Assembly: GCA_013822265.1 (NCBI GenBank)
Contig: PNKD01000017.1
Coordinates: forward strand, 1-48,412
Length of the DNA: 48,412 nucleotides
Origin: Leptothrix sp. (in: b-proteobacteria)
GTDB taxonomy: Bacteria > Pseudomonadota > Gammaproteobacteria > Burkholderiales > Burkholderiaceae_C
Direction: 5' to 3'
The translations under genes and the position numbers were made by a program. This document shows positions 32,552 to 48,334 of this stretch, in pieces. The first letter of the stretch is position 1. Each line of letters opens with the position of its first letter. Under the pieces are notes generated by a model, which did not search any database, was not told where the DNA came from, and worked only from the letters and a program-made list of their open reading frames with translations.

Positions 32552-34281
32552 GCGGTCACCACCTCGGCGGCGGGCGCTGCGGCCTCGCGCGCCATGGCCT
32601 TGGGCGCAGAGACGCCCAGCACTGCCAGCGCGTTGTGCAGCACCTGCGCGGTGGCCGCCAGCAGCGCCATGCGCGCGCGCGCCAGCGCCGGGTCGTCGAC
32701 GAGGAATCTCTCGGCGCCGTAGTAGGTGTGGAAGTTGGCGGCCACCTCACGCAGGTAAAACGCCACGTCGTGCGGCGCCAGGTCGGCTGCGGCGCGGTTC
32801 AGCATCTCCGGGTAATCGGCCAGCTTGAGCATCAGCGCGGCTTCGCTGGGGGCGGTGAGCAGCGCCAGGTCGGCGGCGAAGAAGTCACGCTCGCCGGCGT
32901 AGGCCGCCAGCACCGAGCAGATGCGCGCGTGCGCGTACTGCACGTAGAAGACGGGGTTCTCGTCGCTGGCCTTCAGCGCCAGGTCGATGTCGAACACGAA
33001 CTCGGCGTCGGACTTGCGGCTGACGAGGAAGAAGCGCACCGCGTCGCGGCTGGTCCACTCGATGAGGTCGCGCAGCGTGACGTAGCTGCCGGCGCGCTTT
33101 GACAACTTGACCTCCTGGCCGTCCTTCATCACCAGGATCATCTTGTACAGCGCGTAGTCCGGGTAGCCCAGAGGAATGCCCAGGCTGAAGGTCTCGGAAA
33201 GGACTTGCAGCCCGGCACGCACGCGCGCCACCGTGCCGTGGTGGTCGGTGCCCTGCACATTGATGACCTGCGTAAAGCCGCGTTCCCACTTCGACAGGTG
33301 GTAGGCCACGTCGGGCACGAAGTAGGTGTAGGTGCCGTCCTGCTTGCGCATGACGCGGTCCTTGTCGTCACCGTACTCGGTGGTGCGCAGCCACAGCGCG
33401 CCGCCTTCCTCGTAGGTCTTGCCCGCAGACACCAGGCGCTGCACGGTGCTTGCGACACGGCCGCTGGCGTAGAGGCTGCTTTCGAGGAAGTAGTGATCGA
33501 AGTTCACGCCGAAGGCGCGCAGGTCGAGGTCTTGCTCGTGGCGCAGGTAGGCCACGGCGAACTGGCGGATGGCGTCGAGATCGTCGGCGTCGCCGCTGGC
33601 CGTGAATGCGCGGTCGTCGGCGTGCACCGTCTTCCTGGCGGCGTAGTCGGCGGCAATGTCGGCGATGTACTCGCCGTTGTAGGCCGCTTCGGGCCAGCCG
33701 GCGTCACCGGGCTTGAGCCCCTTCAGCCGCGCCTGCGTCGACAGCGCCAGGTTGGCGATCTGCACACCGGCGTCGTTGTAATAGAACTCGCGCTGCACGT
33801 AGTCGCCCTGGGTCTCGAGCAGGCGGCTGATGCTGTCGCCCAGGGCAGCATTGCGGCCATGGCCGACGTGCAGCGGGCCGGTGGGGTTGGCCGAGACGAA
33901 CTCGACCATCACGCGGCGGCCGCTGCCGGGCTGGCAGCCGTAGGCGGCGCCGGCGGCCAGCACCTCGGCCACCACGGCCTGCTTGGCGGCCGGCGCCAGG
34001 CGCAGGTTGATGAAGCCCGGGCCGGCGATCTCGAGCGCCTGCACCCAACGCTGGAAGGCCGGCGTGGCCTGCAGCGCCTGCACCAGCGCGGTGGCGATGT
34101 CGCGCGGGTTCTTCTTGAGTGCACGCGCCATCGGCATCGCCGCGGTGATCGCCAGGTCGCCATGCGCGGCCTGCTTGGGCGACTCGAAGGCGGCCACCGG
34201 GGCGGGGGCGCCCGCGGCATCGGCCAGCGCGGCGAGGGCGCCCTGCAAGGCCTGCTGCAACTCGTGCTTGGCTTGGATCAT
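32548..34281 (-). CDS. argS: Arginyl-tRNA synthetase
   Basis: A 577-residue class I synthetase. It has the N-terminal additional domain (about residues 1-100), the HIGH motif as HVGH in [15 protein letters not shown], and the KMSKS-equivalent as KLSKR in [14 protein letters not shown]-terminal anticodon-binding DALR domain ends near LGVSAPKAM. It charges tRNA-Arg. ATG at 34281 begins [12 protein letters not shown]. It is the first gene of the argS-SPOR-dsbA run and divergent from the kinase gene, with 108 bases between starts. Confidence 0.98.
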
Positions 34282-34389
34282 GCGCACGATTCTACTTTTG
34301 CACACCGCCCGACGGCTGCCGCCTTGGCGTACCGAGGCGGCTTCGGTCCACAATCGGCCCCCGCTGGTCCCTGGGAACCGTCCGTCGTC

Positions 34390-35751
34390 ATGCCCTTGTC
34401 GAACCTGATCAACGCCGACCCCGACCTGCCCGAAGGCGGCGCGCCGCGCCGGATCGGCAAGTACGAGGTGAAGGCCAAGATCGGCGAGGGCGCGACCAGC
34501 GAGGTGTTCGTCGCCCACGACCCCTTTGCCAACCGCGAGGTGGCCATCAAGCGCGTGCGCCCGGGCATCCTGCCCAACTCGCGCGAGTCGCACTACCAGA
34601 AGCGTTTCTTTGCCGCCGAGGCGGCGCTGGTCGGGCGGCTGCATCACCCCGGCGTGGTGCAGATCCTCGACGCCGTGGCCGATGTCGAGGCCCCTTACCT
34701 GGTGATGGAGTACGTGAGCGGCGGCACGCTGCGCCGCTACTGCCGCGCCGACAGCCTGCTGCCCATCGCGCAGATCGTCGAAATCGGCTTCAAGTGCGCG
34801 ATGGCGCTGGGCTACTGCTACCGGCAGGGCCTCATCCACCGCGACGTGAAGCCGGCCAACCTGCTGGTCGAGGTCGACGGCGATCAGGTCACGCAGGTCA
34901 AGGTCACCGATTTCGGCAGCGTCTTCAACCAGGGCGCCGACGCCACGCAGGTCTACCGCGTGGGCAGCCTGGCCTACATGTCGCCCGAGCAGCTCGACGG
35001 CGACGTGCTCGACAGCCGCGCCGACATGTACTCGCTGGGCGCCGTGCTCTACCACCTGATCGCCGGGCGCCCGCCGTTCGACGCGCAACAGCAGCAGGCG
35101 ATCATGAACCAGATCTACCACGGCACCGCGCCCTCGCTGGCGCTGCTGCGCGAGGGCGTGCCCAAGGATCTGCAGTCACTGGTCGAGCGCTGCCTGGCCA
35201 AGGACCGTGACCTGCGCCCTGCCGACTGGAACGAATTCGCGCAGGTGCTGTCTGCGCTGAGCGCCGACCGCCAGGCCACGCGCGGCTCGGTGCAGGAGGT
35301 GCTCGACTCCGAGCGCTTCACGCTGCTGCGCTCGCTGGAATTCTTCGCCGGCTTCGGCGATGTCGAGCTCTGGGAGGTGGTGCACCGCGCCAAGTGGCAG
35401 CGTCACAGCTACGGCGCGGCGCTGTTCCGCAGGGGCGAGTCGGGCAACACCTTCCACATCGTCACTCAGGGGCAGGTCGACGTCTACCGCGACGGCAAGG
35501 CCGTGGCCTCGCTGGGCGCCGGCAGTTCGGTCGGCGAGATGGCCTATCTCGCGCCCAATCCCGAGCTGCGCGTGCACACGGTGGACATCCTGGTGGCCCA
35601 GCAGGCCACCACGGTGGCCTTCACGCCCGCGTCGATGGAACAGTTGTCGCTGCCCACGCGCCACCTCTTCGACAAGGCCTTCATCGATGTGCTGGTGCGA
35701 CGACTGCACGCGGCGCACGAGGCACTGCACCACCCGCGCCGCGTGATGTAG
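34390..35751 (+). CDS. Ser/Thr protein kinase fused to a cyclic-nucleotide-binding domain
   Basis: A 453-residue soluble protein. Residues about 22-290 are a complete Hanks-type kinase: glycine loop GEGATSEVF, invariant lysine in VAIKRV, catalytic [13 protein letters not shown] in VTDFGSVF, and SPEQLDGD after the activation loop. Residues about 320-440 are a cNMP-binding/CAP_ED domain with [20 protein letters not shown] and [13 protein letters not shown]. There is no membrane helix. The likely function is phosphorylation of unknown targets, tuned by a nucleotide or other ligand. ATG at 34390 is the best start. Whether the C-terminal domain still binds cNMP is uncertain: the usual phosphate-binding RxA arginine is not obvious. 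Confidence 0.92.
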
Positions 35752-38010: not shown

Positions 38011-38026
38011 ACCGGGAGACCCCGCC

Positions 38027-40249
38027 ATGTACACCCCCCTCCAAAGCCTTCAGGTCGCCGACACCCTGGTCCGTTTCGTCGAAGACGAAGTGCTGCCCGG
38101 CACCGGCATCGACGCGGCGCACCTCTGGGCCGGCTTCGACGCCATCGTGCGCGAACTGGCGCCGAAGAACGCCGCCCTGCTGGCCGAACGCGACCGCCTG
38201 CAGGTCGAACTGGACACCTGGCACGCGGCCCACCCGGGGCCGATCGGCGACATGCCCGCCTACCGGGCCTTCCTCGAGCGCATCGGCTACCTCGTCGAGC
38301 CCAAGGGTCCGGCGCAGTGCACCACGACCCACGTGGACGACGAGCTCGCCAAGCTGGCCGGGCCGCAACTGGTGGTGCCCATCCTCAACGCGCGCTACGC
38401 CCTCAACGCCGCGAATTCGCGTTGGGGCTCGCTGTACGACGCGCTCTACGGCACCGACGTGATCCCGGAATCCGGCGGCGCCGAAAAGGGCACCGGCTAC
38501 AACCCGGTGCGCGGCCAGAAGGTGATCGACTACGCCCGCAACGTGCTCGACCAGGCCGCCCCGCTGGCCACCGGCTCGCACCGCGTCGCCACCGGCTACC
38601 GGGTCGAAGGCGGCAAGCTGGCCGTGGCGCTGAAGGATGGCACCGTCACCGGCCTGGCCGACCCGGCCCGTTTCGTCGGCTACCAGGGCAACGCCGCAGC
38701 ACCCTCGTCGGTGCTGCTGCGCCACCACGGCCTGCACCTGGACATCCGCATCGATCGCAGCCACGCCATCGGCAAGAGCGACCCCGCCGGCGTCGCCGAC
38801 CTGGTGGTGGAGGCCGCCTTGTCGACCATCCTCGACCTCGAAGACTCGGTGGCCGGGGTCGACGCCGACGACAAGGTGCTGGCCTACCGCAACTGGCTGG
38901 GCATCCTGCGCGGCACGCTGACCGAGGCCGTGCACAAGGGCGGCCACACCTTCACGCGCCACCTCGAGCCCGACCGCCGCTACACGGGCGCCGACGGCCA
39001 GCCCGTCACGCTGCACGGTCGTTCGCTGCTGTTCGTGCGCAACGTCGGCCACCTGATGACGAACCCCGCCATCCTGTGGGACGACGGTCGTGAGATCCCC
39101 GAAGGCATCCTGGACGCCGTCGTCACGAGCACGATCGCCCTGCACGACCTCAAGCACCTGGGCACGCCCGGCCTGCACAACTCGCGCACCGGCAGCGTCT
39201 ACGTCGTCAAGCCGAAGATGCACGGCCCGGCCGAGGTGGCCTTTGCCTGCGAGCTGTTCAGCCGCGTCGAGCAGATGCTGGGCCTGCCGCAGAACACCGT
39301 CAAGCTCGGCATCATGGACGAGGAGCGGCGCACCAGCGTCAACCTGAAGGCCTGCATCGCCGAGGCCGCGGCCCGCGTGGCCTTCATCAACACCGGCTTC
39401 CTGGACCGCACCGGCGACGAGATCCACACCGCCATGCGGGCCGGGCCGATGGTGCGCAAGCCGCGCATGAAAAACGCCAACTGGCTGCGCGCCTACGAGT
39501 TCAACAACGTGCAGATCGGCCTGGCCTGCGGGCTGCGCGGCCGCGCCCAGATCGGCAAGGGCATGTGGGCCATGCCCGACCTGATGGCCGACATGATGAA
39601 GGAGAAGATCGCGCACCCGCAGTCGGGCGCCAACACCGCCTGGGTGCCCAGCCCCACCGCGGCCACGCTGCACGCGCTGCACTACCACCAGGTCGACGTC
39701 GCCGCGCTGCAGGAAAGCATGGAGGCGTTCGCGCGCCGTCCCGACGCCCCACAGCTCGAAGAGCGGCTGCTCGACGCGATCCTGCAGGTGCCGGTGGCGT
39801 TGGTGCCGTTCTGGACGCCCCCCGAAGTGCAGCAGGAGCTGGACAACAACGTTCAGGGCATCCTGGGCTACGTGGTGCGCTGGGTCGACCAGGGTGTGGG
39901 CTGCAGCAAGGTGCCCGACATCCACAACGTCGGCCTGATGGAAGACCGCGCCACGCTGCGCATCAGCAGCCAGCACATCGCCAACTGGCTGCTGCACGGC
40001 GTCGTCACGCCCGAGCAGGTGCACGCCACCTTCCGGCGCATGGCCGCGGTGGTCGACCAGCAGAATGCCGGCGACCCGCTGTACCAGCCGATGGCCGGGC
40101 ACTGGGACACCAGCCTGGCCTACCGCGCCGCGGTGGACCTCGTCTTCAAGGGCAAGGAGCAGCCCAGCGGCTACACCGAACCGCTGCTGCACGCGGCACG
40201 CCAGGCGGTGAAGCTGGCGCAGGCGCAACCGGTGGCGATGCCTGCCTGA
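38027..40249 (+). CDS. glcB: Malate synthase G
   Basis: A 740-residue monomeric malate synthase, close to the 723 of E. coli GlcB. Family motifs are all present: [62 protein letters not shown], and the C-terminal NWLLHGVV. It condenses glyoxylate with acetyl-CoA to malate. GGGAG lies about ten bases before ATG at 38027. It is probably co-transcribed with the dehalogenase gene and ends facing the defence operon. Confidence 0.98.
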
Positions 40250-40261
40250 AACGGCTTGGCT

Positions 40262-40282
40262 TGGGCGCCCTTGGGGCGCTCA
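40262..40282. terminator. Bidirectional hairpin between glcB and the defence operon
   Basis: GCGCCC (40265-40270) and GGGCGC (40274-40279) form a tight stem with a TTG loop, extendable by three more pairs including one wobble. It lies 13 bases after the glcB stop and overlaps the stop codon of the convergent res gene. There is no clear T-run on either strand, so termination is likely but unproven. Confidence 0.5.
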
Positions 40283-43200
40283 GGTCGGAGAAGTTTCAAG
40301 TTTGGGAACCAACTCGCGCAGGGCCTGCCCCAGCTTCTGCGGGTCCCAGCACACCTCGAAGCGCCATTGGCCCAGTTGCCCCCAGTGGTTCACCGCGGAC
40401 ACCCAACGCTTCGCAGCCTGGTGCTTGGCTTCCGTCTCAGCCATGGCCTGGCCCTTCACCTCCAGCATCACCTGCAGACCATTGCTCAACTTGACGATGA
40501 AGTCCGGCTCGTAGACCCGCGGCTGGCCATAGAACTCGTACGGCACGTTCAGTTCCAGATGATCGTTCCTCGCGTAGCAGATGACATGGCCTTGCTTGGC
40601 CAGCATCTCCAACTGGGTCGCCGCAGCTTGCTCCCAGGAATTCGTGTCCGCAGCCACGAAGTTCAAGTGGCTGGCTGAAGTGGCCTGCACGGGCTTGACG
40701 GTTTTGAAGCGAACGCTGGCCGTGCTCGCTATCGGCCGGTAGCGGTTCAACCGCGGCAGGATGGCCGCCTCACCGCGATCCGCATCCGGTTCGATGGATG
40801 ATGCCAACAGACTCACGACGCGCATCGCGTAGGTCTGAAGGCCCAACTCGCAGGGATGGCAGTCGTTGAAGTCCACCCGGCGATCGATGTAGCCCTGAAC
40901 AAAGCGCAGCACCTGCGGAAAAAGCGTCGCGCGGCCGGTTGAACGCAAGCGCTCCGCACGCGGATGCGCCGCTTCCACCAGCTGCCGCACGACCTCGCGA
41001 GCAATCTCGAAGGCGATGGTCTGCAAGTGCGTGTTGCGGTAGTACTCGTCCCGCGTGACGACATCGAAACCAAAGCCCGTCTGTGTTCCCGGCGAGCCGA
41101 TCGCATAGCCGACCTGTGGGCGCACGAAGGCGGCTGTCGGGTTGGACCAAGGGTCGAGCTTGATGCGCTCGACGGCGTCCACATCGCAGCGAACCAGATG
41201 CCGCTGAAGGTCGACGACGAAGCCCTCGACTACTGGGAAACGCATCTCGAAAGCTGCCCGCGCCGGCATGGCCAGCACCTCGTGCTTGGGCCTGTCGTCG
41301 GGTGGTGGTGGGTCGCCCGGTGGTCTGCCCTTGAACGGAATCAGCGAGAACGGCACGCCGAAGATGTCCACGTACTCTTCGGTCAGCAAGCCGGTGGCGG
41401 GGTCAGGCGTGTAGTCCATGCGACGCAACCCGCGACCGACCACCTGTTCGCAGAGCAACTGGCTGTTGAAGGCACGCAGCCCCAGGATGTGCGTCACGTT
41501 GTTCGCATCCCAGCCCTCGCTGAGCATGTTCACGCTCACCACGCAGCGCACTTGCTCGCCCGGTGCACCCAGCTTGCCGACAGTGGACACGATCCGGCGC
41601 AACGCCTCTGCCGCTTCCTTGCGCGTCGCATTGGGGTCGCCGCTCTCGGCGGCAGCCAGCAGGTTCGAGTCGATGCGCAGCGTGCGCTCCTGCCCCGCCG
41701 CGTTTGCCAACTCGGGGAAGCCCTGCATGCCGCCGTCGTAGCGCTTTACGGGCTTGGGCTTGCGGCGCCTGCGGGGTGCGGCAGCCTCCTCCTCGTCGTC
41801 ATCGTCATCTTCCTCGGCGGCGTCGACCTCCACGGTCTCTTCGCCTGAAATCTTGCGATGGAAGTGTTCGGCAATGTCGGTGTTGTCGCAGACGATGATC
41901 ATCACCGGCGGCGTGCGGTCTTGCCCCGGCGACCCGGCTTCGATCTGCTCAAAACGCCCTTGCCATTGCCCAGCCAGCGTGAGCAGCGCGTCCTCCGCCT
42001 TCCGGAACACGACCTCCGGCTTTGGCTTGCCCCCGGTCAGGCGTTCACCTGCGCGCAGGCCGTCCATCACGTGTTCCCACAGCTTAAAGAACTTGGGGTC
42101 GGGCCGCCCTGTGTTGTCCGCCGCCGGCAGGCGAGGAATCTTGGTGATGCCGCTCTCGATGGCATCGACCAGTGCAAAGTCACTCACGATCCAGGGGAAG
42201 GGCGAGCCCTCGGGGTAGCCGCTGCCGCCGATGTAGAAAGGCGTCGCCGACAGGTCGACGCAGAAGGCCACGCCACAGGCAGCGTTGATCTTGTCCAAGC
42301 CACTCACCCAGACGGTGGCTTCCTCGCGTTCGGCCTTCTCGGCGGTGGTCATCGCCTCGTCATCGGCCACGGGCGCCGGGCGGTAGGCGTGGTGGCCTTC
42401 GTCGTTTAGCACCAGGATCGGCTCGTCGTCCCAGAGTTCGTTCAGGCGGCTGCGCGCAAAGGAGTTGGCCGTCTCCGGCCCCAGACGGCCCACCGCCACG
42501 CCGCCGACGCGGATGTCCTCAGCCTCGGGGTTGAACGCGTGCCAGTTGGTGACGCGAACTCGGCCCTTGGCCAACTCCGGCCGCAGAGAGCTGGGCACGA
42601 TGTCGAACTTGTCGAAGTAGTTTTCCGGGTCGCCCGGGTTCAGCACCGCAAGTCGCTCGCGGATCGTGAGGTTGGGGCACACCACCAACGCCCGGCGCGG
42701 GTAGCGGGTGTCACCCGGTTTGGTGCCGCGGTTGCAGAAGGCCCAGGCCAGCAGCAGCGTCATCACCACCGTCTTGCCGCTGCCGGTGGCCATCTTGCAG
42801 GCGTAGCGCGTCAGTGCCCGCAGCCCCGCTTCGTGCGGCCGGTCAACCAACTTGGGATGCTGCGCCACAGTCGTCACCCACTCCAGCGGGCGCGGGTTGC
42901 GGCCCGCCATCAAGGCCTCGTGGTCGGCCAGGGTCAGCTTAGGCGTGAACGGCGGCTTGCGTCCCTGCGCCAGCATCTCGCGCAGGTAGATCAGGGTCTC
43001 GGCGGCCTCGATCTGGCAGAAAAACAGGCGTCGCGATCGGTCTTCGCGCGACCAGTGCCGCAACAGCGTCTTGGTGGTTTCGCTGGCGCCGCGCCAGCCA
43101 CCATCGCGCCAGCGCTTAACGTCTTCGCGCAGGGCGTTGACCAGCGGCAGGTCGTCGCTCTCCTCCTGCGTCATGAAGGCCAGCTTCTGCTGCGCGCTGC

Positions 43201-43369
43201 CGGTGCGGTCGCTCTTGAACCAATAGCCGGCGGCGCGCCGGCCCGGTTCCTTGCGGGGGATGCCGGTGCTGCGGTTGTAGAGCCAGTGCTGGTCGGGTTC
43301 CTTGTAGGGCGAGCACAGGATGGGCTTGTCGACCGGCTGGATGGGAAGGTCGGCTTGCGCGGCGTTCAT
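40280..43369 (-). CDS. Type III-like restriction helicase-endonuclease (Res)
   Basis: A 1029-residue protein. The SF2 helicase core has Walker A ATGSGKT (residues 194-200), a DEGH motif II (323-326; DExH class), SAT motif III (374-376), and GRGLRRMDY as motif VI. Residues 954-972 form a PD-(D/E)xK nuclease site (EPDF, with Asp956, then Glu970 and Lys972 in LEVKG). This is the layout of type III Res, which moves along DNA and cuts after meeting its Mod partner. An acidic run (E/D, about 527-545) followed by basic RRRRKPKP forms an unusual charged linker in the helicase region. ATG at 43369 overlaps the previous gene stop. It is the last gene of a four-gene operon headed by mod. Confidence 0.93.
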   Translation of the reverse strand: MNAAQADLPIQPVDKPILCSPYKEPDQHWLYNRSTGIPRKEPGRRAAGYWFKSDRTGSAQQKLAFMTQEESDDLPLVNALREDVKRWRDGGWRGASETTKTLLRHWSREDRSRRLFFCQIEAAETLIYLREMLAQGRKPPFTPKLTLADHEALMAGRNPRPLEWVTTVAQHPKLVDRPHEAGLRALTRYACKMATGSGKTVVMTLLLAWAFCNRGTKPGDTRYPRRALVVCPNLTIRERLAVLNPGDPENYFDKFDIVPSSLRPELAKGRVRVTNWHAFNPEAEDIRVGGVAVGRLGPETANSFARSRLNELWDDEPILVLNDEGHHAYRPAPVADDEAMTTAEKAEREEATVWVSGLDKINAACGVAFCVDLSATPFYIGGSGYPEGSPFPWIVSDFALVDAIESGITKIPRLPAADNTGRPDPKFFKLWEHVMDGLRAGERLTGGKPKPEVVFRKAEDALLTLAGQWQGRFEQIEAGSPGQDRTPPVMIIVCDNTDIAEHFHRKISGEETVEVDAAEEDDDDDEEEAAAPRRRRKPKPVKRYDGGMQGFPELANAAGQERTLRIDSNLLAAAESGDPNATRKEAAEALRRIVSTVGKLGAPGEQVRCVVSVNMLSEGWDANNVTHILGLRAFNSQLLCEQVVGRGLRRMDYTPDPATGLLTEEYVDIFGVPFSLIPFKGRPPGDPPPPDDRPKHEVLAMPARAAFEMRFPVVEGFVVDLQRHLVRCDVDAVERIKLDPWSNPTAAFVRPQVGYAIGSPGTQTGFGFDVVTRDEYYRNTHLQTIAFEIAREVVRQLVEAAHPRAERLRSTGRATLFPQVLRFVQGYIDRRVDFNDCHPCELGLQTYAMRVVSLLASSIEPDADRGEAAILPRLNRYRPIASTASVRFKTVKPVQATSASHLNFVAADTNSWEQAAATQLEMLAKQGHVICYARNDHLELNVPYEFYGQPRVYEPDFIVKLSNGLQVMLEVKGQAMAETEAKHQAAKRWVSAVNHWGQLGQWRFEVCWDPQKLGQALRELVPKLETSPT

Positions 43370-43938
43370 GGCGCGACCCCCTGCAGGTGGGCCGCAATGC
43401 GGTCGCGCAGCGTCTTGAGCTCAGGGCACAGCTGGTACAGCAGCGCCAGATTCGCCAGCGCCGCACCGATCATGAGATCGCGCCCGCCGCTGGGCCGTCT
43501 GGCATCGCCGTGTCGGTCCAGCAGTGGGGGGAAGATCACTTCCTTGAACCGCGCGTGGCGGCGGGCCTGGGGCCATCCGCCCGGGATCTCGGCGCGGTAC
43601 GGCACCGAAGCAAAGATTTCCAGCTCCGGTTCGGCTGCGCAACACATCAGCGTGACACCCTGGGCGGCGACTGCCGCCTCCAGCGCCGTCATCGCGGCCG
43701 GTTTCGCCTTGTCGGCGTCGGGCATGAACAACCACAGGTCCATCCAGCGATAGCGATCGACCAGCGCGCCCTTGATGGCGGCAACCGCCTGCTCGAAGCC
43801 CTGCACTCGCGGGTTGTCCAGCACCCGCACGTCAGCGGCCAGCTTGCCGGCGTCGGCCAGCACCGCCTGGACCAGCGGCTTCAGGATGGCACCGTTGTGC
43901 GTGTGGTCCTCGGGGATCACCAACACCTTGAAACTCAC
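43366..43938 (-). CDS. Toprim-like protein (RloB/DUF4276-type), defence-associated
   Basis: A 190-residue protein. The first strand KVLVIPEDH carries Glu10, a second strand DLWLFMPDADKAK carries Asp74 and Asp76 (D-x-D), and EPELEIF follows. This spacing matches Toprim-fold nuclease-like proteins such as RloB, DUF4276 and the AriB/OLD partners of ABC-type ATPases. The start is GTG 43938 with GGAGG seven bases upstream, overlapping the ATPase stop by four bases; a TTG further up is less likely. Its own stop overlaps the res start. The protein likely acts with the ATPase just before it. The exact family needs a profile search; the Toprim reading rests on three acidic residues and fold pattern. 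Confidence 0.65.
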   Translation of the reverse strand: MSFKVLVIPEDHTHNGAILKPLVQAVLADAGKLAADVRVLDNPRVQGFEQAVAAIKGALVDRYRWMDLWLFMPDADKAKPAAMTALEAAVAAQGVTLMCCAAEPELEIFASVPYRAEIPGGWPQARRHARFKEVIFPPLLDRHGDARRPSGGRDLMIGAALANLALLYQLCPELKTLRDRIAAHLQGVAP

Positions 43939-45167
43939 AGCGCCGCCTCCAGCCAACCCTCGGCAAAGAGATCGGCTATCGGCTGCTTGTTCACCACGTC
44001 CAGGAAGTGCGGCACTTCCGGAAGCGCGCAGATGCGGGATTCGCCTGTCGCTTCGTCGCGCTTGCAGAAGAAGGTGCTCGCGTATTCCGCCTCGGTCAAC
44101 CAGGCCAGAACGATGGGCGAGTGGGTGGTGGCCATGACCTGCGTGGTGCCAGCCGCTGCACGGCTGCGCAGCAGGTCCACCAGCAAACGCACCCGGCTGG
44201 CGTGGATGCCGTTCTCGATCTCCTCGATCGTCATCACGTCGGGCATGTCGGGCTGGAAGAACGCCGCCGTGATGGCCGCAAAGCGCAGCGTACCGTCGCT
44301 GAGGACAGTGGCAGGGAAGGGCTCGACACGTCCGTGTTCCTTGAGCATGAACAGCGGCTCGCCCACGGCACCCGTCAACGTGCCGACGTCATCCACCTCG
44401 GCCGGGCGAAGTTGTCGCAGCCACGACAAGTAGGCGTCTTTGGTCTTGGCGTCCTTGCCGATCGTGTTGACCAGCGCGGCAAAGTTCTCGCCCCGCTCGC
44501 CCATTCGCGCTATGTGTTGCGTTTGCGAATAGCCGCGCAGCACGGCCGGGCTCGGATCGATGCGCTGCATGTTGGCCAAGGTGCGTGCGATGGCCGAGGC
44601 GGCTTCCGCGTGCGCGGACTTCACGCCTTGATCACCGTTGGCGCGGGCAAGCTGCGTCAGCACTGGCCGGGCACGTTCGAACTTCAAGTGCGGCGGCCGG
44701 CTCTGGTTCCCCGACTGGTAGCGCACGGCAATCACCGGGTCAGCGCGGGTGTTCTTGCTCACGGGGGCGGAGTCGAAGACCTCACCGGGCACTGCGAGCC
44801 GTTCGTGAACCACCCGCCCGTCGCTGGCGCCTAGCGTGATGGCGTACTCCCAGGCGGCGCCAGTCTTGCCTGCGAGCCGGCCACTGACCAAGAACGCGAT
44901 CTCATCTGTCTGGGCTTCGGGCAGGAAACAGGCTTTCGAGCTGCCCCCGCGGACACCCTCCCACACTTCGCTCGTGGCGCTGCGTGGCTTGCCGTCCAGG
45001 ATCTCGCTGATCGTGAACCCGTTGCCGATGCCCTGCAGCACCCGCAGCGCGTCGAAGAAGTTGCTCTTGCCGCTGGCGTTGCTGCCAATGAACAAGTTCA
45101 TGCGGCCGAGCTTCAAGTCCACCTTGCGCAGGCTCTTGAAGTTCTCGATGAGGATGCGTTCGATCAT
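43935..45167 (-). CDS. ABC/AAA_21-type defence ATPase (RloA/AriA-like)
   Basis: A 410-residue SMC/RecF-like ATPase. It has N-terminal MIERILIENFKSLRKVDL, Walker A GSNASGKS (residues 28-35), a signature-like LSDGT (289-293), Walker B and catalytic glutamates in MTIEEIENG (about 312-320), and a switch histidine in TTHSP. Such ATPases pair with Toprim or nuclease effectors in OLD, Gabija, PARIS and Rlo systems, where they sense phage or foreign DNA events. ATG at 45167 lies eight bases after the mod stop. The tail ends without a fused Toprim domain, so the separate Toprim-like gene after it is the likely effector. Confidence 0.88.
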   Translation of the reverse strand: MIERILIENFKSLRKVDLKLGRMNLFIGSNASGKSNFFDALRVLQGIGNGFTISEILDGKPRSATSEVWEGVRGGSSKACFLPEAQTDEIAFLVSGRLAGKTGAAWEYAITLGASDGRVVHERLAVPGEVFDSAPVSKNTRADPVIAVRYQSGNQSRPPHLKFERARPVLTQLARANGDQGVKSAHAEAASAIARTLANMQRIDPSPAVLRGYSQTQHIARMGERGENFAALVNTIGKDAKTKDAYLSWLRQLRPAEVDDVGTLTGAVGEPLFMLKEHGRVEPFPATVLSDGTLRFAAITAAFFQPDMPDVMTIEEIENGIHASRVRLLVDLLRSRAAAGTTQVMATTHSPIVLAWLTEAEYASTFFCKRDEATGESRICALPEVPHFLDVVNKQPIADLFAEGWLEAAL

Positions 45168-45175
45168 GGTGGGCC

Positions 45176-48100
45176 TCACTCGGGCATGGTGAGCACACGC
45201 AGGCCTTCGTTGCCCCGCGGGTCGATCACCTTTACCGCCACGCGCCACGGTGCGCGGGCTGGCAGGCGCAGTGGCCGCGCAAAGGCCAGGCACTCGAATC
45301 CCGACAGCGCGTCGAAGCGCCCTTCGTCCACCACGCCCTTGTCACCCAGGGCGCGGGCCAGCTTGTCCCACTTCTTGCGGTCGGGGAAGAAGGCCTGGCA
45401 GATGCAGAAGGTGCGGCCGTCGTAGTCGGTGTCGACGAACCAGGCGGCGATGCGGTCGCGGCTGGTGGGGAAGAGCGCGTTGCTCACCGGGTCGTAGACG
45501 TCCATGCCTTCCACTTCCACCGTGAACTGGCCGTCGGCCTGGCGCACGGGCGGCTTCACGCGCGGCGCGCTGAAGACCATGAAGAGCTGGCTGCCGGGCT
45601 GTGACTTCAGCAGGTCGCCCATGGCCACGTCGGGGCGAATCAGCGCCATGTGCAGGCGCAGCTTGGGGTGTGTGGCTTCGTCGATGGCGGCCTGCGCGGC
45701 GGCGTCGAAGCCGAAGCCGGCGAACACCACTTCGTCGTAGCCGGCGCGGTTGGCCGCGCGCACCGCGTCTTCCACCTGGTAGGCAGTGACGTTGCCCACC
45801 TCGGGGCCTACCGACACCGCCACGCGCCGGTCGCCGTCGTCGGTCCAACTTCCTTCCGCGTGCAGCAGCGCCGCGCTGGCCATGGGCTCCAGCCGCGCGA
45901 AGCGTTTGTTGACGTTACCCGCGAAGTCCACGCCCGACGCCTTCAGCAGCCGCATGATCTTGTCGAGGTGGGCTTCGGCGTTGGTCACTGTGCCGGCAGC
46001 CACGCCTTCGCCGTCGAAGGTGTCGAGTTCGCCCGGCGCGCCGCCGATGGGCGAATCGTCGTCAGGGCCCTGCTCGTGCGCAATCACACCTTCGATCGTG
46101 AAGGGCCCGGCCACGCGCACCACGCCGGGCGCGGGCAGCGGCTGATCGACCAGTTCTTCCACGTCGGCATTGGCCGCTATGCAGGCGTTCACCTCGTCCA
46201 TCTTGGTGCGCCAGGCGGTGCGGTAAGCCGTCAGCGCGTCGGCCAGTGGCTTGGGCCAGTCGGCGTCGGTGTCGAAGGGCACCTGCCAGGCTTGCCACTC
46301 ACCCACAGGGATGGCCGCGCGGTAGGCCTGCGCCTGCTTTGCCGTCAATGCCTTCAGCGGCTTGGCCGCTTTGGCTTCGCGCAGGTGCGCGGGGTGCGTG
46401 CCGGGCAGCAGCCAGCGGCGGATGTCGGCATCGCTGACCGCGCTGGCGCCTTCTTCGCGGTGCTTGCGCGTCAGCTTCGCCGACAGCTTGTCTTTGAGTT
46501 CCGGCGTCGCCTTGGCCAACGCGTGGTTCAGCGCGGTCAGCTTCACGGCAAGCACCGGCTCGTGTTTCGCAAAGATGGGGTCCAGTGAGCTGTTGCGCGC
46601 GATGCTTTTCAGCGTGATGTGCGGCACCGTCTTGCAGTCAAACGTCTTCGGCTCGGGTCCCCCGTTGCGCAGCCAGGCGCCGCGCGGGTTGCGTTGAAGG
46701 TCTTCGGGCGAGAGCGCTCGCAGCTTGAAGTGCTCGAAGCTGGCCGTCATCAGGCGGTGCTTCGCCAGCGCCAGCGCCACGCGGCTGGAATCGATGGTGA
46801 TCCAGCGGCGGCCCCATTTCTCGGCGACGAAGGCCGTGGTGCCGCTGCCGCAGGTGGGGTCGAGGACGAGGTCGCCGGGGTCGGTGGTCATGAGGAGGCA
46901 GCGGTCAACAACTTTCGTCGCTGTCTGCACCACGTACACCTTCGATTCTGTGAAGCTTCCTGTGCTTGTGTCGGTCCACATGTTGGCGACAGGCGTTACC
47001 GCGAAGTCCAAGAACATTCGCTTGTAACGCAACGTCGAACCCGTTACACCAAGCCGATTCGCACGCTCTAGCCGCCTTAGGCCTGGGCCGTCGCTCTTGA
47101 ACGTTCCCTTGGTCACCGGGTACGGGACTCCTTGAAAGTCGTAGCTCTTGAGGTCGCCGTCTCCGGCAGGCCGCGAGGACGTAATGTTGTCCATCGAGAA
47201 AAGGCGCGACTCGGCAAGCATGGCTGAACGAGACTCGGCATGCGAAGCAACCAATGTCAACTCGTGGCCAGACGTGAACTCAAGGTACTTATAAATGTTG
47301 TCTGGCTCATCGTCTTTGGGTAGATAAACAGGGTTGAACTTGATCCGCGGCTTGTCCTTCGCATACCAAACCAAGAAGTCGTTGACTGTCGCAAGTAAGT
47401 CGCCTGAGCCAGTTGTCGTCGTCTTAAAAGAAACCACGCTCACAAAGTTCTCGGCGCCGAGCACGTCATCCATCACGCACCGCACCCGATGCAGGTTCTC
47501 ATCCGAAATCTGCACGAACACACTGCCGCTCTCGGTCAACAGCTCGCGCGCCATCATCAGCCGGTCGCGCAGATAGGCCAGGTACGAATGGATGCCCAGC
47601 GTCCAGGTGTCGCGGTAGGCCTTCACCATCTCGGGCTCGCGCGTCAGGTCCTGCTCGCGGTCCTTCACGTCACGTTGGCCCAGTTGCGGCTGGAAGTTGC
47701 TCTTGAAGCTGATGCCGTAGGGCGGGTCGATGTAGATCATCTGCACCTTGGCCGCCAGGTCTTCGCGCCTCGCCAGACTGGCCATCACCGCCAGGCTGTC
47801 GCCCAGGATCATGCGGTTGGACCAGTCCACTTCGTGCTTGTAGAACTGCACCGCCTCGGCGTAACTCTGCTGCGGGTCGGCAAACAGGTCGCGGTTCACG
47901 TCTTCGCGCGCCAGCACGCGCAGCATGGCCTGGGTGCTGACGCGTTCATGGATGTGCAGCGCCGGCGGCTCCACTTCGAACCAGGGCCGCTCGCGCTTGC
48001 CGGCCCATTCCAGCCAGGGCTCGTGGCGGCGCAGCGCGGCGGCGAGCACGGCCGCTTCGTCGGCGCTCAACGCGCGTTCGCGGGCGGTGGCCAGCAGTTG

Positions 48101-48334
48101 CGGCAGACGGTCGGTCGCCGCCGGGTCGTCGGAGAAGCGGAGCACCGGCGGCAGGTGCGGGTTGTACTCAAACCGCGCCTTGGGTGCCTCTTCCACCCGG
48201 CCCTGCGCCTCCAGCCCGGCGGGCGGGATGTTCTTGCGCTTGGCGCGGTGGCGGGTGGCCTGGATGGCCTGCTCGGCGCCTGGCGCGTCTGTACCCTCTG
48301 GCGCCGTCGGCGGTGTGCTCTTGCGTGTGGGCAT
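45176..48334 (-). CDS. Type III-like adenine DNA methyltransferase (Mod)
   Basis: A 1052-residue N6-adenine methyltransferase of the beta class: the catalytic DPPY (residues 203-206) comes before the SAM motif DPTCGSGTT (492-500). The ~290 residues between hold the presumed target-recognition region. The long C-terminal half (about 560-1052) exceeds that of classical type III Mod (~650). It contains a second, unassigned domain pair including EVEGMDVYDPVSN and WFVDTDYDGRTFCICQAFFP. Large Mods of this kind accompany DEAD/DEAH Res partners. ATG at 48334 opens a basic, low-complexity N-terminus. It is the first gene of the operon. DNA from about 46,960 to 47,440 is visibly AT-richer than the rest of the gene and corresponds to residues ~300-458. 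Confidence 0.92.
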   Translation of the reverse strand: MPTRKSTPPTAPEGTDAPGAEQAIQATRHRAKRKNIPPAGLEAQGRVEEAPKARFEYNPHLPPVLRFSDDPAATDRLPQLLATARERALSADEAAVLAAALRRHEPWLEWAGKRERPWFEVEPPALHIHERVSTQAMLRVLAREDVNRDLFADPQQSYAEAVQFYKHEVDWSNRMILGDSLAVMASLARREDLAAKVQMIYIDPPYGISFKSNFQPQLGQRDVKDREQDLTREPEMVKAYRDTWTLGIHSYLAYLRDRLMMARELLTESGSVFVQISDENLHRVRCVMDDVLGAENFVSVVSFKTTTTGSGDLLATVNDFLVWYAKDKPRIKFNPVYLPKDDEPDNIYKYLEFTSGHELTLVASHAESRSAMLAESRLFSMDNITSSRPAGDGDLKSYDFQGVPYPVTKGTFKSDGPGLRRLERANRLGVTGSTLRYKRMFLDFAVTPVANMWTDTSTGSFTESKVYVVQTATKVVDRCLLMTTDPGDLVLDPTCGSGTTAFVAEKWGRRWITIDSSRVALALAKHRLMTASFEHFKLRALSPEDLQRNPRGAWLRNGGPEPKTFDCKTVPHITLKSIARNSSLDPIFAKHEPVLAVKLTALNHALAKATPELKDKLSAKLTRKHREEGASAVSDADIRRWLLPGTHPAHLREAKAAKPLKALTAKQAQAYRAAIPVGEWQAWQVPFDTDADWPKPLADALTAYRTAWRTKMDEVNACIAANADVEELVDQPLPAPGVVRVAGPFTIEGVIAHEQGPDDDSPIGGAPGELDTFDGEGVAAGTVTNAEAHLDKIMRLLKASGVDFAGNVNKRFARLEPMASAALLHAEGSWTDDGDRRVAVSVGPEVGNVTAYQVEDAVRAANRAGYDEVVFAGFGFDAAAQAAIDEATHPKLRLHMALIRPDVAMGDLLKSQPGSQLFMVFSAPRVKPPVRQADGQFTVEVEGMDVYDPVSNALFPTSRDRIAAWFVDTDYDGRTFCICQAFFPDRKKWDKLARALGDKGVVDEGRFDALSGFECLAFARPLRLPARAPWRVAVKVIDPRGNEGLRVLTMPE

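What the first reader, a model, noticed from the sequence alone, without database searches (positions are those of the whole stretch)
40280..48334. Composite defence operon: RloA/RloB-like ATPase-Toprim pair embedded in a type III-like mod-res operon
Four minus-strand genes are locked together: mod, then eight bases, an ABC/AAA_21 ATPase, a four-base GTGA overlap, a Toprim-like protein, an ATGA overlap, and res. Established: type III systems need only Mod and Res, and ATPase-Toprim pairs (OLD, PARIS AriA/AriB, RloA/RloB) act as independent abortive or nuclease modules; Rlo genes were first noted inside type I restriction loci. Inference: here the pair may be a back-up that fires when restriction is inhibited, or a part of the restriction complex itself. 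The strict translational coupling argues for a shared stoichiometric complex rather than chance proximity.
Basis: partly seen in the sequence, partly recalled or inferred. Interest (0 to 1): 0.85.

Follow-up and report, generated by a model that had tools for sequence, protein, structure and literature searches.

The report
Swappable defence pair inside restriction operon
A bacterial DNA-modification and cutting operon carries, wedged between its two genes, a two-gene ATPase and nuclease-like pair that looks like a plug-in anti-virus module, since its relatives also occur apart from that operon and inside other defence systems.

Summary
Mod and Res form a type III-like system (Res passes NCBIfam's BPTD_3080 cut-off). 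The small protein has no match in Pfam, NCBIfam, PADLOC or PHROGs. Its confident model best matches, moderately, an RloB-like protein, and nearly all 69 aligned relatives keep its Toprim-type acidic residues.

The pair is a module of its own. The ATPase lies beside the small gene in 79 of 80 related loci. At least 17 of the 80 are embedded in methylation-based defence operons: this type III-like kind (2), another type III (1), Hma (12), DISARM-like (1), type I between hsdS and hsdR (1). The rest showed no such neighbour.

The mod-res junction is a replaceable slot: empty in 7 of 26 mod-first loci, elsewhere holding this pair, HEC-01-like, PD-T4-4-like, long single-gene ATPase or other cassettes. 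Two nearly identical res genes carry unrelated cassettes.

So this is most likely an embedded, exchangeable ATPase-nuclease cassette, not a fixed restriction subunit. A back-up role when restriction is blocked fits PARIS but is untested. Embedding of such modules is published; this protein family and slot were not found in the libraries and papers searched.

The parts
45176..48334 (-). mod: type III-like DNA methyltransferase, 1052 aa
   Evidence: PADLOC MTase_III PDLC03632 E 4.8e-166; Pfam N6_N4_Mtase E 1e-27; DPPY at 203 and DPTCGSGTT at 492
43935..45167 (-). ABC-type (OLD/SMC-like) ATPase, 410 aa, first gene of the embedded pair
   Evidence: Pfam AAA_21 E 4.2e-31; PADLOC PDC-M07A E 1.3e-67; model pLDDT 94.0, best PDB matches PtuA of Septu and of retron complexes
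43366..43938 (-). small RloB/Toprim-like protein, 190 aa, predicted nuclease, second gene of the pair
   Evidence: no family match; in 70 aligned sequences D74, E105, E107, R126, K132 are invariant, E10 in 68, D11 in 67, D76 in 69, E133 in 69; model pLDDT 94.7, pTM 0.90; best BFVD match an RloB-like protein, TM 0.54; hhalign to RloB 80%
40280..43369 (-). res: BPTD_3080-family restriction endonuclease (helicase motifs plus a PD-(D/E)xK-like motif), 1029 aa
   Evidence: NCBIfam NF046055 895.5 bits, cut-off 800; ResIII E 1.1e-7; motifs
43366..45178 (-). cassette slot from the mod stop codon to the res start codon; in other loci empty or holding other cassettes
   Evidence: slot survey, cassette exchange in a near-identical backbone, pairless relatives

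Best explanation
An independent two-gene defence module (ABC ATPase plus RloB-like Toprim-type nuclease) sits in an exchangeable slot between the mod and res genes of a type III-like restriction-modification operon and is translated with them. The restriction system methylates host DNA and cuts unmethylated DNA. The pair acts on its own: the ATPase, probably as an oligomer, senses infection (a phage product or blocked restriction) and releases or activates the small nuclease, which cuts nucleic acid and stops the infection, probably at the cost of the cell. Shown here: anatomy, homology, modularity, replacement of slot content. Inferred: nuclease activity, control by the ATPase, trigger, abortive outcome.
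For: ATPase and small gene together in 79 of 80 loci, 4-base overlap in 69 of 78. At least 17 of 80 loci lie inside five kinds of methylation-based system; the others showed no such neighbour. Context (embedded or not found embedded) changes 13 times on the pair tree, 12 forced by well-supported branches. Close mod-res relatives lack the pair. Of 26 mod-first loci 7 slots are empty and 19 filled, 12 with an ABC ATPase; 12 of 13 slot ORFs of 300 aa or more carry the ABC Walker A pattern against 1 of 180 flanking ORFs. L060 and L061: res 99.4% identical, cassettes unrelated. Toprim-type acidic residues conserved, RloB-like fold. PARIS mechanism from PMC11455837 (whole text).
Against: No activity was or could be measured. 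The fold match to RloB is moderate (TM 0.54, E 5.4e-3) and no solved structure matched at E <= 0.001. Window, L073 and L074 differ to a similar degree in all four genes (57-69% identity), which a joint function would also give, and the careful pair tree puts these three together (support 79/85, not strong). The embedded label is slightly clustered on the pair tree (13 changes against a shuffled mean of 15.7). 'Not found embedded' rests on ten reference proteins and often on short contigs.
Confidence: 0.68

Rival explanations
1. Back-up reading in the strict sense: the pair monitors the host restriction system and fires only when a phage anti-restriction protein blocks Mod-Res, as PARIS responds to Ocr.
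For: Repeated placement inside five kinds of methylation-based operons. PARIS is triggered by Ocr and Arn (PMC11455837, whole text). OLD-ABC/TOPRIM modules in BREX loci are read as back-ups (PMC12839542, passages).
Against: In 62 of 80 loci no embedding and no remnant was found, so a partner restriction system next door seems not required. The trigger is not testable here.
Confidence: 0.3
2. Co-transfer reading: the pair is an ordinary stand-alone phage defence module, and the RM operon is only a shared vehicle for expression and transfer, without functional link.
For: Copies without a detected host system in most of 80 loci, repeated changes of context, cassette exchange at gene junctions.
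Against: In mod-first loci the slot is strongly enriched in ABC ATPase genes over flanking genes, more than co-transfer alone would lead one to expect (inference).
Confidence: 0.4
3. The pair is a true part of the restriction complex, adding an ATP-driven sensor and a second nuclease to Mod-Res.
For: Tight gene junctions, same order in L073 and L074, similar divergence of the four genes.
Against: Close relatives keep mod and res without the pair, one of them (L217) inside the pair-bearing group (98/98; holding the three pair-bearing rows together gives p 0.046). Other unrelated cassettes fill the same slot. The pair is equally tight in other systems.
Confidence: 0.08
4. Toxin-antitoxin-like addiction module that stabilises the RM operon, the ATPase restraining the small toxin.
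For: AriA restrains AriB in PARIS (PMC11455837). In res-first loci some slots hold genes of toxin-antitoxin look: L007 is annotated UPF0175 plus DUF3368; PIN-like genes in L184, L230, L245 are read from sequence only.
Against: No test of toxicity. L217 may have lost the pair while keeping mod and res, although two gains explain the same tree.
Confidence: 0.15

Closest known systems
Embedded candidate systems HEC-01 and PDC (guilt-by-embedding, Payne et al. 2024 preprint, itself not seen)
   Same: ABC ATPase plus small protein embedded in other defence systems. The window's ATPase matches PDC-M07A (E 1.3e-67) and, more weakly, HEC-01A. HEC-01-type pairs occupy the same slot in L050, L172 and L173, and lie between a mod tail and res in L060.
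   Different: The small protein matches neither HEC-01B nor PDC-M07B nor DUF4276.
RloB (Pfam PF13707) and its RloA partner
   Same: Fold (BFVD top hit, TM 0.54) and order of the E, DxD and E motifs (hhalign 80%); one relative sits between hsdS and hsdR (L104).
   Different: No PF13707 match by sequence. That Rlo genes were first noted in type I loci is recalled.
PARIS (AriA/AriB)
   Same: ABC ATPase with a separate Toprim nuclease; the window's ATPase hits PADLOC AriA models (E 3.7e-31).
   Different: No known trigger here, and AriB is not among the 50 PDB fold matches listed for the small protein.
OLD-ABC/TOPRIM back-up effectors of BREX and BREX-related systems (PMC12839542, passages)
   Same: ABC ATPase plus nuclease encoded next to or within core loci of modification-based defence, read there as back-ups.
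   Different: The host here is a type III-like RM with a replaceable mod-res slot; the terms RloB and DUF4276 do not occur in that paper's main text.
DarTG2 embedded between hsdS and hsdR (PMC12255303, passages)
   Same: Second defence system nested between genes of an RM operon; the site is suggested there to be a hotspot and also holds an ATPase gene pair in four genomes.
   Different: Type I host; toxin-antitoxin cargo in the main case.

Membership tests
BPTD_3080 type III-like restriction-modification | Res passes the curated NF046055 cut-off | tested here: met
   895.5 bits against 800
BPTD_3080 type III-like restriction-modification | adjacent type III-like Mod with methyltransferase motifs | tested here: met
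Type III restriction-modification (enzymology) | ATP-dependent cutting at two inversely oriented sites (recalled) | not testable with these tools
   needs purified enzyme
RloB (PF13707) | sequence match to the Pfam model | tested here: not met
   no match up to E 1
RloB-like / Toprim fold | fold similarity | tested here: inconclusive
   BFVD top hit RloB-like, prob 1.00, TM 0.54, E 5.4e-3; no PDB match at E <= 0.001
RloB-like / Toprim fold | conserved E, DxD and further acidic residue | tested here: met
   E10 in 68, D74 in 70, D76 in 69, E105 and E107 in 70 of 70 sequences
PDC-M07 | ATPase PDC-M07A | tested here: met
   E 1.3e-67
PDC-M07 | partner PDC-M07B | tested here: not met
   no PADLOC match for P0003 up to E 0.1; model PDLC04394 (PDC-M07B) not found in the own genome at E <= 1
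HEC-01 | partner HEC-01B (DUF4276) | tested here: not met
   no match; hhalign 28% to five DUF4276/HEC-01B proteins
PARIS | activation by Ocr-like proteins and tRNA cleavage by the Toprim partner | not testable with these tools
   needs phage and tRNA assays
Embedded defence module (kind) | nested between genes of another defence system and also found outside it | tested here: met
   'outside' means no host system found for ten reference proteins

The most novel reading that the evidence does not exclude
The junction between mod and res of these type III-like systems is a dedicated exchange site for ATPase-nuclease back-up effectors. Unrelated cassettes are swapped there with similar break points, from about 16-24 bases before the mod stop to the res start, and each is tuned to fire when its host restriction system is disabled. 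The window's pair is one such effector, with a previously unnamed RloB-like nuclease family.
Probability: 0.25. Interest if true: 0.75.

Novelty: new variant of a known kind. Interest (0 to 1): 0.55.

Why it matters
It gives a natural system for asking whether embedded ATPase-nuclease modules are back-ups of the operon they sit in or mere passengers: related restriction backbones exist empty, with this pair and with other cassettes, and relatives of the pair exist in other systems and without a detected one. It also points to an RloB-like protein family without a match in the four libraries searched, found in 11 named phyla by record titles.

Tried and rejected
Integral-subunit reading: rejected as the main explanation because of pairless close relatives and the pair's occurrence elsewhere. 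Calling the pair PDC-M07 or HEC-01: rejected, since the partner protein does not match. Calling it PARIS: not tested beyond the ATPase match. Calling the small protein DUF4276: no match, weak profile link. PDB sequence searches with the small protein and with its alignment gave only weak matches to unrelated proteins. Phage records gave no match, and one pattern match in viral contigs was not confirmed. Literature: BPTD_3080 and PDC-M07 gave 0 papers. In the listings I saw no title or start of abstract on this arrangement; apart from PMC12255303 those papers were not opened. The Payne 2024 preprint is not in the library and was not seen. An ABC ATPase paper (10.1093/nar/gkaa726, recalled) is not held.

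Limits of counts: the slot table rests on 76 loci: 5 of 40 plasmid records with a Res match, 25 of the 34 places, 14 regions from the 26 places, 28 of the 29 places (the 29th is the genome of L074) plus one, L073, L074 and the window. Nine loci (8 without mod found, 1 with mod on the other strand) were set aside, leaving 26 mod-first and 41 res-first. 'Empty' means no same-strand ORF of 70 aa or more between them. The ATPase of L172 was missed by the slot caller and is counted. Flanking ORFs include mod and res themselves and are mechanical ORFs. The Fisher value for ATPase in the slot by gene order (2.3e-5) was computed with 27 instead of 26 mod-first loci and ignores kinship; gene order changes once on the Res tree. 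Eight of 78 pairs were dropped as incomplete before the pair tree, among them embedded L143. RloB alignment: 10 of the 12 matches (one frame not recovered, one partial). The clade test for pair-bearing mod-res (p 0.046) is borderline; the quick pair tree splits the three (2 changes), the careful one joins them (79/85), and window plus L071 as one clade is not rejected (p 0.119). L060 is a 5 kb contig, so its 55-base mod tail could in principle be an assembly join; L172/L173 against L176/L178 support similar break points. In the first attempt to file I misstated the Res motif spacing, the break-point range and the place of the acidic stretch; these were mended.
Full report
Anatomy. Mod matches a PADLOC type III methyltransferase model (E 4.8e-166). 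Res is a BPTD_3080-family restriction endonuclease by NCBIfam (895.5 bits, cut-off 800). The ATPase is AAA_21 (E 4.2e-31), closest in PADLOC to PDC-M07A (E 1.3e-67). The small protein has no match in Pfam, PADLOC, NCBIfam or PHROGs. Expected motifs are present in Mod, ATPase and Res.

What the small protein is. One scan of genome contigs with a five-sequence alignment found 84 relatives, of which 80 loci were kept, from 11 named phyla. In 70 aligned sequences D74, E105, E107, R126 and K132 are invariant; E10 is kept in 68, D11 in 67, D76 and E133 in 69. The model is confident (pLDDT 94.7, pTM 0.90). Its best match among viral models is an RloB-like protein (prob 1.00, TM 0.54, E 5.4e-3; nothing reached E 1e-3); no PDB match reached E 1e-3. 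A profile comparison with ten RloB (PF13707) proteins gave 80% probability and lined up the E, DxD and second E motifs; five DUF4276/HEC-01B proteins gave 28%, two PD-T4-4-like partners 0.1%, and HEC-01B against RloB 6%. I read it as an RloB/Toprim-like probable nuclease of a family not named in those libraries.

The ATPase. Its model (pLDDT 94.0) matches PtuA of Septu and of retron complexes, Rad50 and SMC heads in the PDB. That PtuA-type ATPases control a partner nuclease is recalled; the complexes are named in the PDB titles.

The pair is a unit. An ATPase of this family lies next to the small gene in 79 of 80 loci; in L135 neither gene was recognised. The two genes overlap by exactly 4 bases in 69 of 78 scored pairs.

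Where the pair lives. Neighbour searches place 17 of the 80 loci inside other defence operons. L073 and L074 are of this type III-like kind. L081 is another type III operon whose res is split over two ORFs. Twelve are Hma: HmaB-pair-HmaC in L085, L092, L101, L102, L115, L132 (with a second ATPase gene before the pair), L136 and L147; L143, cut at the contig edge, with HmaC after the pair; HmaA-pair-HmaB in L076, L114 and, in broken ORFs, L118. Hma genes were identified by PADLOC in L076, L085, L114, and in part L115 and L132, otherwise by BLAST to L085 and L114. L082 lies after a methylase that hits DISARM DrmMI best and type IIG models next. L104 lies between hsdS and hsdR. L135 is an Hma operon with a remnant and is not counted. 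The remaining 62 showed no such neighbour for ten reference proteins, but many contigs are short. In eleven embedded loci measured to the first possible ATPase start, the pair overlaps the upstream gene by 4 bases in L073, L074, L076, L102 and L147 and by 8 in L104, and lies 11 to 61 bases after it in the other five. Context changes 13 times on the pair tree, 12 forced by well-supported branches; shuffled labels average 15.7.

Mod-res without the pair. L217 (res 64.8%, mod 60.4% identical to the window), L063 (58.7, 57.0), L218 (55.3, 53.1) and L219 (53.8, 53.9) have adjacent mod and res and no pair; L073 and L074 (67.9-68.9, 62.8-63.1) have it. On the mod-res tree L217 falls inside the pair-bearing group (98/98; clade test p 0.046), so the pair was probably lost in L217 or gained twice. 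The pair's own careful tree leans to one origin for the window, L073 and L074 (79/85), without proof; L071, not found embedded, is closest to the window (66% over both proteins). Among 100 genomes of the window's relatives, the own one included, the small protein was found in the own genome and, as a weak partial match, in one other.

The slot. Of 76 Res loci examined, 67 have mod on the same strand and contig. In 26 mod comes first: 7 slots are empty (4-58 bases between the matched parts) and 19 filled. Twelve of the 26 hold an ABC ATPase: this pair (window, L073, L074); an ATPase plus DUF4276/HEC-01B protein (L050, L172, L173); a PD-T4-4-like pair (L053); and long single-gene ATPases (L055, L061, L175, L231, and L236, 71% identical to L231), which hit NsnB, AriA, GajA and similar models and which I call OLD-like, their C-terminal part not tested. 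Among the loci set aside, L060 and L058 show HEC-01-like pairs and L054 a PD-T4-4-like pair next to res. In 41 res-first loci 14 are empty and one holds an ABC ATPase (L180). In the mod-first loci 12 of 13 slot ORFs of 300 aa or more carry the ABC Walker A pattern, against 1 of 180 flanking ORFs. Other fillings include DUF3800 (L003) and proteins without a Pfam match (L008, L232, L176).

Exchange. L060 and L061, from two genomes of one genus, share res at 99.4% over 3101 bases from the res start and 55 identical bases at the mod end, but carry unrelated cassettes. In the window's genus L172/L173 (HEC-01-like) and L176/L178 (a 160 aa gene) match at 80-86% up to about 18-24 bases before the mod stop and again from the res start; in L173 a 1.3 kb insertion interrupts the mod end. 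This shows different content in a kept backbone.

How it most likely works. Inference: Mod and Res act as a type III-like system; the ATPase senses infection and controls the small nuclease. By analogy, AriA of PARIS holds AriB and releases it on meeting Ocr, whereupon AriB cuts tRNA (PMC11455837, whole text; AriB is a Toprim nuclease whose E26A mutant does not cut, PMC12409363, passages). Recruitment of OLD-ABC/TOPRIM modules as back-ups has been argued for BREX and related systems (PMC12839542, passages), and embedded candidates are known as HEC and PDC (PMC12988326, passages). Whether this pair reports on restriction or senses phage directly is not decided by anything here.

Novelty. The kind is known. 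What was not found in the searched libraries and papers is this small-protein family and a description of the BPTD_3080 mod-res junction as an exchangeable slot (searches; mostly listings, five papers opened).

Noticed in passing
L060:1-5087 and L061:2750-7600: Nearly identical mod end and res (99.4% over 3101 bases) with entirely different cassettes between them: looks like a recent swap.
   Followed up: yes
L173:5113-6418: About 1.3 kb insertion in the mod 3' end with two overlapping ORFs of 101 and 299 aa, absent from L172; looks like an insertion sequence (not searched).
   Followed up: no
L135:3810-5751: Hma operon (HmaA, HmaB) with only a remnant of the small gene between them.
   Followed up: partly
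L220, L227, L230, L235, downstream of mod: In these res-first loci an ABC ATPase lies downstream of mod (in L227 after one further long ORF). The gene after it looks DUF4276-like in L227 and L235 and PIN-like in L230 (read from sequence, not searched).
   Followed up: partly
L132:1830-5702: A second ABC ATPase ORF (E 2e-25 to the pair's ATPase profile) lies between HmaB and the pair.
   Followed up: no
L056:14815-16628: Genes beside res look like a ThiF/E1 and JAB-type protein (read from sequence, not searched).
   Followed up: no
window 40250-40279: res converges on malate synthase G (38024-40246, + strand) with 30 bases between the stop codons and a G+C-rich inverted repeat, possibly a shared terminator; no terminator scan was run.
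   Followed up: no
window 41753-41815 (Res residues 519-539): Res has a strongly acidic stretch followed by a basic one (EEDDDDDEEE...RRRRKPK) between helicase motifs.
   Followed up: no
window 33205-35748: ORF with a eukaryotic-type protein kinase domain (Pfam Pkinase E 7.3e-49).
   Followed up: no
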